Shown here piece after piece: positions 18,594 to 20,011 of a stretch of 20,016 nt of DNA. The DNA lies in the IMG/VR virus record IMGVR_UViG_3300015263_000213, positions 1 through 20,016 of that record; one strand, given 5' to 3'. Under the pieces are notes generated by a model. The model was not told where the DNA came from. It made no database searches and saw only the letters and a list, made by a program, of their open reading frames with translations. Origin of the DNA: a virus. The translations under genes and the position numbers were made by a program. Position 1 is the stretch's first letter, and the number at the start of each line of letters is the position of its first letter.

Positions 18594-18657
18594 TTTTAGG
18601 TTCCATTCCGCAATTCGAAAAATCTTTTTTGCATAAAGACCAAAACGGAACCTGTAG
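18594..18657 (+). repeat. TTTTAGG...CCTGTAGA stem element, copy 1
   Basis: TTTTAGGTTCC opens and GGAACCTGTAGA closes this element; AGGTTCC (18598-18604) pairs with GGAACCT (18647-18653). The interior includes GCAA...TTGC around AAAAATCTTTTT. It lies between the convergent tRNA-Asp and oxygenase genes, so it might also serve as a terminator. Two further copies are at 19292 and 19369. Confidence 0.6.
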
Positions 18658-18659
18658 AA

Positions 18660-19232
18660 TTAACGCCACTTTGGTCCATCAAACCATGCGGCTAGAGAGT
18701 ATCTTACTCCCTGTGTCACTGGATTTGCTTTGTGTCTGAATAGTGACGGAAAGAATATAATAGTGCCTTGCTCCTTTATCTCATCAGGTAAAGGTGTTAG
18801 ACCTTCGGTAAGTTCTAGTTCACCGCCTGTATAAGTTGCAGGGTCTGATAGCTGAACTACTGCCGTAATCTTACGATGATAGTATGGATCGTTATTCATC
18901 CAGAAAACGTCATGGTGCTCTTTATATTCACCCTTGTAAGCAGAATCATACTCTGCTAATTGTATGTAATCGAGTTTTGAGATTTGGATATCAAACCAAT
19001 CTCTGTTTGCTTGTTGGACAGTTTTCCACATAGCATCAAAGAGGTATTCAAATTTCTGGTTGTTTGAAGTCAAAAACTTTACCGATGATCTACGGTAGTC
19101 TTTGTCTAGTCCAATACCACCATTGACACCAATGACGGCATCGCTAGCACTGATATCCTTAGCATCATTGATAATCTGTTGACAAATCTCTTTTGAGAAG
19201 TAAGACTTGAAATAACACCATTCACCCTTCAT
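18660..19232 (-). CDS. 2-oxoglutarate/Fe(II)-dependent dioxygenase
   Basis: A 190-residue leftward protein of the 2OG-Fe(II) oxygenase superfamily, a type common in T4-like phages. Iron ligands are visible as H106-H107-D108 (HxD in KEHHDVFW) and H167 (FRHKANPV), and R177 (GVRYSLAAWF) is the expected 2-oxoglutarate anchor. ITAVVQLSDPATYTGGELEL is the typical strand pair before the second histidine. The substrate is unknown; protein, nucleic acid and lipid hydroxylation are all possible. The start at 19232 is preferred over the ATG twelve bases upstream because GGAG sits seven bases before it. It is the only leftward gene, divergent from a tRNA promoter. Confidence 0.88.
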   Translation of the reverse strand: MKGEWCYFKSYFSKEICQQIINDAKDISASDAVIGVNGGIGLDKDYRRSSVKFLTSNNQKFEYLFDAMWKTVQQANRDWFDIQISKLDYIQLAEYDSAYKGEYKEHHDVFWMNNDPYYHRKITAVVQLSDPATYTGGELELTEGLTPLPDEIKEQGTIIFFPSLFRHKANPVTQGVRYSLAAWFDGPKWR

Positions 19233-19291: not shown

Positions 19292-19368
19292 TTTTAGGGT
19301 TGTTACAGCAAAACTTTTACGCTAAACTAATGTTGGATTGTCTTAGCGGACAAAAACAACCCTGTAGA
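19292..19368 (+). repeat. TTTTAGG...CCTGTAGA stem element, copy 2
   Basis: TTTTAGGGTTGTT opens it; AGGGTTGTT (19296-19304) pairs exactly with AACAACCCT (19355-19363), followed by GTAGATT. An inner stem CGCTAA/TTAGCG (19320-19325, 19343-19348) caps it. The interior (ACAGCAAAAC..., ATGTTGGATTG) loosely resembles the permuted-tRNA element that follows, but no tRNA arms are found in it. Confidence 0.6.
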
Positions 19369-19372
19369 TTTT

Positions 19373-19494
19373 AGGAAACTTGCAGCAAACGCAACTTTGT
19401 TGTATGTTGGTTCGATTCCAACTTTTTCCGTTTTGGAAAAATCGCTCAATGGTAGAGCATCTGACTCATAATCAGACAAACAAAATGGTTTCCT
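19373..19494 (+). tRNA. Candidate circularly permuted tRNA-Met (anticodon CAU)
   Basis: The tRNA parts occur in rotated order. First comes T stem GTTGG (19406-19410), loop TTCGATT, CCAAC (19418-19422), 3' acceptor strand TTTTTCC (19423-19429) and G. A four-base TTTT follows, then 5' acceptor strand GGAAAAA (19435-19441), TC, D arm GCTC-AATGGTA-GAGC (19444-19458), A and anticodon arm TCTGA-CTCATAA-TCAGA (19460-19476; anticodon CAT 19467-19469). Acceptor 7/7, D 4/4, anticodon 5/5 and T 5/5 pairs are all Watson-Crick. The flanks pair too: TTTGTTG (19396-19402) with CAAaCAAA (19477-19484) and AGGAAAC (19373-19379) with GTTTCCT (19488-19494), making an extended variable arm. CCA is not encoded. 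The coordinates include this arm; it is also copy 3 of the TTTTAGG element. Confidence 0.8.
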
Positions 19495-19504
19495 GTTGAA
19501 TAAT

Positions 19505-19580
19505 GCCGTATTAGCTCAGTCGGTAGAGCAGTTGCCTTGTAAGCATCAGGTCTGGGGTTCGATTCCTCAATGCGGCACCA
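19505..19580 (+). tRNA. tRNA-Thr (anticodon UGU), CCA encoded
   Basis: Acceptor GCCGTAT/ATGCGGC (one G-U), D arm GCTC-AGTCGGTA-GAGC, anticodon stem GTTGC/GCATC with one T-T mismatch, loop CTTGTAA (anticodon TGT), variable AGGTC, T arm TGGGG-TTCGATT-CCTCA, discriminator A and encoded CCA. Length 76. It starts ten bases after the permuted tRNA element. Confidence 0.92.
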
Positions 19581-19780
19581 GAATACCCGTCTATGGTAAA
19601 ATGACGTTAAAGTTACCCGGCGTTTGTTTTGGTTAGGCCGTATAACGCACACCAAACGGGTTCTATAAGCCCTAACTTTTATAGTGGTGCTATCTTGAGC
19701 CAAAGAGTCAGGATCGAAGTCCCGCAGTGGCATAGCTTGTGTCCGAGCTATGATCGCAAGATCGCAAGTGATGAAAATGG
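19581..19780 (+). ncRNA. Structured spacer between tRNA-Thr and tRNA-Ala
   Basis: No gene is seen. Complementary segments include ACCCGT (19585-19590)/ACGGGT (19656-19661) enclosing GCGTT (19620-19624)/AACGC (19644-19648), then CTATAA (19663-19668)/TTATAG (19679-19684), CATAGCT (19731-19737)/AGCTATG (19746-19752) and GATC-GCAA-GATC (19752-19763, GNRA-type loop). This could be one or two structured RNAs or processing hairpins of the tRNA precursor. No family recognised and no hidden tRNA arms found. Confidence 0.45.
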
Positions 19781-19788
19781 TATAAATA
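19781..19788 (+). promoter_or_regulatory. TATAAATA box upstream of tRNA-Ala
   Basis: An exact match to the T4 late promoter consensus, 20 bases before the tRNA-Ala-like gene. If functional, this tRNA would be transcribed late, unlike the tRNAs behind sigma70 promoters. Confidence 0.5.
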
Positions 19789-19808
19789 GTCACAGGCAGT
19801 AATTTATT

Positions 19809-19885: not shown

Positions 19886-20011
19886 ACACATTGTCCTGAC
19901 CGTAAGGAAGGAAGCTCGTAACTCTGAAAGAAACTAGTTGACTTATAATCCTAGTTACGCTATAATGGCGGTGAGAAAAGTTGGTACAAGGATGCGAGAC
20001 CAACAATGTGT
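19886..20011 (+). repeat. 9-bp inverted repeat bracketing the right-hand end
   Basis: ACACATTGT (19886-19894) is the exact reverse complement of ACAATGTGT (20003-20011). Between them is an inner GTTGGT/ACCAAC pair (19980-20003 region) and the promoter at 19938. It resembles the other outer stems of this region but lacks the TTTTAGG/CCTGTAGA ends. No tRNA arms are recognised; the partner gene may lie beyond the window. Confidence 0.45.
19938..19966 (+). promoter_or_regulatory. Strong promoter at the right edge
   Basis: TTGACT at 19938-19943, 17-base spacer, TATAAT at 19961-19966. AACTAG (19932-19937) and CTAGTT (19951-19956) form an inverted repeat around the -35. It probably drives further RNA genes outside the window. 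Confidence 0.75.

What the first reader, a model, noticed from the sequence alone, without database searches (positions are those of the whole stretch)
19373..19494. Circularly permuted tRNA-Met gene in a phage
The 3' half (T arm and 3' acceptor strand) precedes the 5' half (5' acceptor strand, D arm, anticodon arm) with a GTTTT loop between the two acceptor strands. All 21 expected stem pairs are Watson-Crick, the conserved TTCGA and GG of T and D loops are present, and the outer flanks pair as a long variable arm, so the whole RNA folds as a tRNA opened at the variable region. Permuted tRNAs are established in some red and green algae and a few archaea, and two-piece tmRNA in alphaproteobacteria uses the same trick. 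I know of no classical phage example. Without ligation the product would be a two-piece tRNA held by helices; T4-like phages often carry RNA ligases that might close it. Standard linear tRNA scans would miss it.
Basis: partly seen in the sequence, partly recalled or inferred. Interest (0 to 1): 0.95.

Follow-up and report, generated by a model that had tools for sequence, protein, structure and literature searches.

The report
Phage RNA hairpin mimicking opened tRNA
The stretch holds a tRNA-Met shape written in scrambled order inside a hairpin RNA, one of hundreds of related hairpins between the tRNA genes of large phages that display whole or partial tRNA shapes; most lack the tail a working tRNA needs, so they look like tRNA look-alikes rather than tRNAs.

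Summary
Window 19406-19476 holds T arm, 3' acceptor strand, GTTTT, 5' acceptor strand, D arm and CAU anticodon arm in permuted order, all 21 pairs Watson-Crick, closed by AGGAAAC/GTTTCCT. ARAGORN reads it as tRNA-Met only after re-ordering. A homologue (L010) keeps every helix through compensatory changes.

It is not a lone permuted gene. It is the apical part of an RNA cassette, absent from Rfam, found inside phage tRNA arrays. I mined 288 cassettes. Closing arms are complementary in 247 of 271 (33 when swapped). Inserts vary: lone anticodon stem-loops, T-acceptor-D modules without an anticodon arm, D-anticodon-T modules without an acceptor, or whole tRNAs opened at different joints. Isolates CBB and XbC2 carry a divergent form.

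Most permuted acceptors are capped by short loops; 21 of 94 encode CCA against 1160 of 1206 linear tRNAs beside them. Best reading: a tRNA-mimicking RNA that displays tRNA parts on a common scaffold, perhaps as bait for host enzymes that cut or handle tRNA. The mimic identity is well supported; the decoy function is inferred. Closest known: bacterial Y RNA YrlA, but TROVE and RtcB genes were not found and the closing motif differs. No expression data.

The parts
19369..19503 (+). whole RNA cassette carrying the permuted tRNA-Met-shaped insert
   Evidence: motif and fold; 127.3 bits with model R1, which includes it
19373..19379 (+). 5' arm of the closing stem (AGGAAAC)
   Evidence: complementary to 19488-19494; arms co-vary across the family, 247/271 versus 33 swapped
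19380..19388 (+). conserved internal motif TTGCAGCAA (family: (N)TNCAGCAA)
   Evidence: shared by cassettes, mostly invariant columns in A1
19406..19422 (+). T arm (GTTGG-TTCGATT-CCAAC)
   Evidence: T stem co-varies across family, 94 real versus 22 swapped
19423..19429 (+). 3' acceptor strand TTTTTCC, no CCA follows
   Evidence: pairs with 19435-19441; 6 of 7 acceptor pairs change on both sides in A1
19430..19434 (+). acceptor cap loop GTTTT
   Evidence: most family members have 2-6 nt caps
19435..19441 (+). 5' acceptor strand GGAAAAA
19444..19458 (+). D arm (GCTC-AATGGTA-GAGC)
19460..19476 (+). anticodon arm TCTGA-CTCATAA-TCAGA, anticodon CAT
   Evidence: the L010 homologue has a different stem and the same loop
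19488..19494 (+). 3' arm of the closing stem (GTTTCCT), continuing into the conserved GTT
19292..19370 (+). second cassette directly upstream, insert with CGCTAA..TTAGCG and TGTC..GACA complements
   Evidence: motif; orthologues at L007:3945 and L020:9252; fold z -2.07
18594..18664 (+). third, divergent cassette (CCGCAA instead of CAGCAA) right after tRNA-Asp; insert can form TCTTT-TTTGCAT-AAAGA
   Evidence: 28.3 bits with model R1, E 0.0003; sequence; fold not better than shuffles, z -0.70

Best explanation
The locus encodes a non-coding RNA hairpin, released from or transcribed within the phage tRNA array, whose apex folds into a tRNA-Met shape. The order is permuted because the tRNA is grafted onto the scaffold at its variable region: the two strands of the closing stem leave where the variable loop would be, and the acceptor end is sealed by a small loop. 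It is one of a family of cassettes that use the same closing motif to display different tRNA parts. Shown by sequence: the cassette, its covariation, the variety of inserts, the location in tRNA arrays, and the usual lack of CCA. Inferred: the RNA stays as a capped tRNA mimic rather than becoming a charged tRNA (about 0.75), and acts as bait or competitor for host proteins that bind tRNA, most plausibly tRNA-cutting defence enzymes such as anticodon nucleases (about 0.4). The conserved (N)TNCAGCAA stem may bind a protein or be a processing site.
For: Closing arms complementary in 247/271 motif hits, 33 after swapping, 55 arm pairs. Acceptor partners 64/105 versus 4.2 swapped. 18 of 28 pairs changed on both sides in A1, 0/500 shuffles, lost on sliding. 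Cassettes lie a median 3 nt from a linear tRNA, same strand in 276/277. In 15 phage records of 147-524 kb the 5' motif gives 51 hits, one strand per record, and 0 for the reversed control. Inserts are modular: 65 lone anticodon stem-loops, with loops CTTGTAA (16) and CTTTTAA (13) kept on several different stems. CCA in 21/94 permuted versus 1160/1206 linear. Anticodon loops vary within otherwise conserved members. [quoted passage not shown]).
Against: No RNA or protein-binding data. Nothing ties a given insert to a given host nuclease. Some inserts (21 of 94) keep CCA and might be charged. The re-ordered window sequence is a flawless tRNA-Met, more than a crude decoy needs. Some cassettes hold 100-200 nt inserts of unknown kind that are not obviously tRNA mimics.
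Confidence: 0.45

Rival explanations
1. A true circularly permuted tRNA-Met gene: RNase P and 3' processing open the GTTTT loop, CCA is added, and the nicked or ligated product works as tRNA-Met.
For: Perfect tRNA-Met after re-ordering; L010 keeps the CAU anticodon with changed stems; no linear tRNA-Met on the partial window and L010 contigs; RNA ligase genes in about 10 of 18 large records.
Against: No CCA, 5-nt cap; family members carry only parts of tRNA or unlikely decoders (anticodon AAA, loops of changed length); the anticodon of 9 of 28 intact permuted ones is already served by a linear tRNA on the same fragment; no RtcB above cut-off in 18 records.
Confidence: 0.17
2. A Y-RNA-like scaffold: the tRNA-like apex recruits or tethers a protein bound to the conserved stem, as YrlA with Rsr/Ro60.
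For: Same T-acceptor-D order and closed acceptor as YrlA; weak RF02553 match 26.2 bits at 19405-19458.
Against: Below the gathering score of 69; TROVE absent in 24 records; anticodon arms kept or shown alone, which the YrlA model does not have.
Confidence: 0.2
3. The cassette is a selfish or processing element of tRNA arrays that picks up tRNA fragments by recombination; inserts have no function of their own.
For: Many different inserts in one frame; nearly always next to tRNA genes; endonuclease genes of homing type match such arrays.
Against: Insert helices keep pairing through double changes and anticodon loops stay constant on changing stems, which indicates selection on the insert RNA.
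Confidence: 0.13
4. A linear tRNA-Met lacking a T arm at 19435-19494, as the Rfam partial hit suggests.
For: 30.3 bits, above the gathering score of 29; a similar hit in L010 at 31.5 bits.
Against: Its acceptor would use the 3' cassette strand with mismatches; L074 and L329 cannot form it, while T arm and permuted acceptor are conserved in all aligned members.
Confidence: 0.03

Closest known systems
Bacterial Y RNA YrlA (Rfam RF02553)
   Same: Non-coding hairpin whose apex has T arm, capped acceptor stem and D arm in the same permuted order, closed by a stem of the two RNA ends.
   Different: Below Rfam threshold; closing motif TTTTAGR...CAGCAA/YCTGTT; no TROVE gene found; carries anticodon arms; many other insert types; lies in phage tRNA arrays.
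Circularly permuted tRNA genes of red and green algae and some archaea
   Same: 3' half precedes 5' half with a linker between acceptor strands; tRNA recognised after re-ordering.
   Different: From general knowledge those form a bulge-helix-bulge for a splicing endonuclease and yield mature tRNA; here bacteria-infecting phage, short caps, mostly no CCA, a shared hairpin motif at the opening, partial tRNAs in sister cassettes.
Permuted two-piece tmRNA of alphaproteobacteria
   Same: T arm and 3' acceptor before 5' acceptor and D arm; cassettes with CCA and no anticodon arm look alike.
   Different: No tmRNA match at the cassette; window insert has an anticodon arm; only the tRNA-Ala next door gave a weak tmRNA score (24.4 bits, below threshold).
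Phage T4 stable RNAs C and D (species 1 and 2)
   Same: Small non-coding RNAs beside a phage tRNA cluster; species 1 ends in a T arm.
   Different: No cassette motif, not permuted.

Membership tests
tRNA gene (RF00005) | linear order 5' acceptor, D, anticodon, T, 3' acceptor | tested here: not met
   ARAGORN negative in native order; Rfam partial hit without T arm
Permuted tRNA gene | tRNA recognised when halves are re-ordered | tested here: met
   tRNA-Met(cat); 26/27 family members recognised re-ordered, 0/28 native, 0/300 shuffles
Permuted tRNA gene | conserved helices with compensatory change in relatives | tested here: met
   18/28 pairs changed on both sides, 0/500 shuffles
Permuted tRNA gene | processing into a mature, charged tRNA | not testable with these tools
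   no RNA data; CCA absent here and in 73/94 permuted modules speaks against it
YrlA / bacterial Y RNA | passes the RF02553 gathering score | tested here: not met
   26.2 bits against 69
YrlA / bacterial Y RNA | partner Ro60/Rsr (TROVE) in the same genome | tested here: not met
   0 of 24 cassette-bearing records, some partial; the host could supply it
YrlA / bacterial Y RNA | T arm, capped acceptor, D arm in that order on a closing stem | tested here: met
Two-piece tmRNA | tmRNA covariance or ARAGORN match | tested here: not met
   no tmRNA match at the cassette; ARAGORN reported no tmRNA in the window
Any other Rfam 15 family | covariance match over the cassette at gathering score | tested here: not met
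   only tRNA matches over the window and eight cassette-bearing loci

The most novel reading that the evidence does not exclude
Large phages carry a modular system of non-coding RNAs that present interchangeable pieces of tRNA (anticodon stem-loops, elbow and acceptor modules, or whole tRNAs opened at different joints) on one conserved hairpin scaffold, to absorb or block host enzymes that attack tRNA: a set of tRNA decoys evolving alongside tRNA-cutting immunity.
Probability: 0.35. Interest if true: 0.95.

Novelty: new variant of a known kind. Interest (0 to 1): 0.85.

Why it matters
To my knowledge and in the papers searched, permuted tRNA shapes have not been reported in phages, and standard tRNA scans miss them. 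A common scaffold that shows different tRNA parts would be an RNA class found in many large phages. It would make the question of what phages gain from tRNA arrays directly testable, since each cassette predicts which part of which tRNA is under attack or being bound.

Tried and rejected
Linear tRNA without T arm: rejected by the alignment. Tandem linear tRNAs posing as permuted (L005, L007, L020, L148 and others): removed by checking linear tRNA overlap. Known Rfam RNA: none. Y RNA operon: no TROVE, no RtcB. T4 RNAs C and D: no motif. Bacterial chromosomes: the cassette pattern gave 9 hits in 257 Gb and none gave a convincing cassette. BLAST against isolate phages with whole cassettes mostly returned ordinary tRNAs or homing endonuclease genes; an anticodon-arm cassette led to CBB and XbC2. 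U33 in all 28 intact anticodon loops is partly built into the parser and is not used as evidence.

Full report
The observation. RNAfold gives this structure without constraints, z -3.78. ARAGORN misses it in native order and calls tRNA-Met after re-ordering; 0 of 300 shuffles are called. The window is a phage fragment (PhoH, T4-type RNase H, NAMPT, cytidylyltransferase-Nudix) ending in a tRNA array.

A homologue with compensatory change. From phages related through the NAMPT gene, L010 holds the same permuted tRNA-Met with changed acceptor, D and anticodon stems, all still paired, and nearly identical flanks. Those flanks led to the main finding.

The flanks are a family. A repeated cassette, TTTTAGR + 4-5 variable bases + (T)NCAGCAA ... 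complementary bases + YCTGTT, recurs in the tRNA arrays of related and unrelated phages. I mined 288 distinct cassettes on 122 fetched sequences; a few listed ones, such as L154:1749 and L370:4540, look spurious. To avoid circularity I took the 5' motif alone: 247 of 271 have a complementary 3' arm with the GTT-like tail, against a mean of 33 (maximum 52) when arms are swapped between cassettes; there are 55 distinct arm pairs. Cassettes sit a median 3 nt from a linear tRNA and share its strand in 276 of 277 cases. In 15 phage records of 147-524 kb the 5' motif occurs about 50 times, on one strand per record, and 0 times for the reversed pattern. A scan of 84,980 bacterial and archaeal genomes found 9 pattern hits and no convincing cassette. 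Rfam 15 has no matching family.

What the cassettes carry. (a) Lone anticodon stem-loops, 65 by a selective parser; loops CTTGTAA (Thr UGU, 16) and CTTTTAA (Lys UUU, 13) recur on several different stems. (b) T arm, acceptor, D arm without an anticodon arm, often with ACCA, for example L061:3753 and L173:3106. (c) Whole permuted tRNAs, opened at the variable region (window, L010, L074, L287, L288, L329) or between D and anticodon arms (L079 and others). (d) D, anticodon and T arms without an acceptor (L074:7696, L267:7231). (e) Other inserts up to about 250 nt. In all, 94 cassettes hold T arm, acceptor and D arm in permuted order. Anchoring only on the T loop, 64 of 105 have a 7-bp acceptor partner within 45 nt, against 4.2 (maximum 12) after swapping. 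ARAGORN recognises 26 of 27 re-ordered family members and 0 of 28 in native order. On alignment A1 of 13 variable-region-opened cassettes, 18 of 28 pairs change on both sides, 90.4% of cells pair, no shuffle reaches this, and sliding the partners destroys it.

Isolates. Pectobacterium phage CBB (NC_041878) and Xanthomonas phage XbC2 (OP292654) carry a divergent form, for example GGAATCTNNCAGCAA...AGATTCC: 11 of 18 and 13 of 22 forward CAGCAA sites have a complementary arm, against 1 of 4 and 1 of 9 on the other strand. The control strand numbers are small. XbC2 L374:7670-7799 matches model R1 at E 5e-6 without being in it. So the cassettes are not a metagenome assembly artefact.

Working tRNA or mimic? 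Against maturation: most caps are 2-6 nt; CCA is encoded in 21 of 94 permuted modules but 1160 of 1206 linear tRNAs on the same loci; sister cassettes have only fragments; and in a close sub-family (L265, L268, L274, L288, L348, L351, L359) the body is nearly constant while the anticodon loop varies in sequence and length. For maturation: the window member is a perfect tRNA-Met, and neither its contig nor L010's shows a linear tRNA-Met, though both are fragments. I therefore favour a mimic and leave maturation at 0.17.

What it resembles. YrlA has the same T-acceptor-D order with a capped acceptor; the window scores 26.2 bits against a threshold of 69. TROVE is absent from 24 records and RtcB from 18; T4-type RNA ligases occur in about 10 of 18. 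It works like a YrlA-type mimic in architecture but is not a member by the tests run. The decoy idea rests on precedent: YrlA's tRNA-like domain was proposed as a competitive inhibitor of an anticodon nuclease (PMC7790460), and phage tRNAs counter tRNA-cutting defences (PMC10264068, PMC11555353).

Limits.

Noticed in passing
window 18594-18664: Third cassette directly after tRNA-Asp, with CCGCAA in place of CAGCAA; insert can form an anticodon-like hairpin TCTTT-TTTGCAT-AAAGA.
   Followed up: partly
window 19292-19370; L007:3945, L020:9252, L061:3019, L080:7690: A cassette sub-family whose insert has complements CGCTAA..TTAGCG and TGTC..GACA arranged like a pseudoknot, with conserved GGATGTC.TAGCG.GACA.
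   Followed up: partly
L254:3011, L260:2712, L285:8423, L331:7024, L349:7824 (-), L358:12650 (-): Cassettes with long inserts that share GTGAGTTTCGATTTCTCAC-like hairpins and AAAAAGTAG near the 3' end; an unknown RNA of its own.
   Followed up: no
L077:1137, L173:3344 (-), L314:279 (-): Cassettes with about 200 nt inserts sharing GACTCTGGAAAGACAGAAA and several hairpins; identity unknown.
   Followed up: no
L074:10239, L329:6849, L264:5472, L326:3465: Permuted modules whose acceptor strands are separated by about 100 nt of structured-looking RNA rather than a short cap; T loop TGCAA instead of TTCGA.
   Followed up: no
window 19578-19808: Long spacer between tRNA-Thr and tRNA-Ala with a T-arm-like GTCAGGATCGAAGTCCCGC; no cassette recognised.
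   Followed up: no
window 19896-19940; L010:9402-9440: TCCTGACCG...GGAAG-like element shared by both arrays, outside the cassettes.
   Followed up: no
L374:5330-5451 (XbC2), L373:3965-4083 (CBB): Annotated tRNA-Lys(TTT) of 122 nt and tRNA-Ser(AGA) of 119 nt overlap CAGCAA motifs and may be misannotated mimic cassettes.
   Followed up: partly
L376:2409-2547 (-) (T4 rnaC): T4 stable RNA species 1 ends in a perfect T arm CCGGGTTCGAATCCCGG; tRNA-like, but without the cassette motif.
   Followed up: partly
L036:9446-9571: A permuted tRNA-Met-like module closed by AAACAG/CTGTTT without the CAGCAA motif, 54 bits with R1: a possible more distant family branch.
   Followed up: partly
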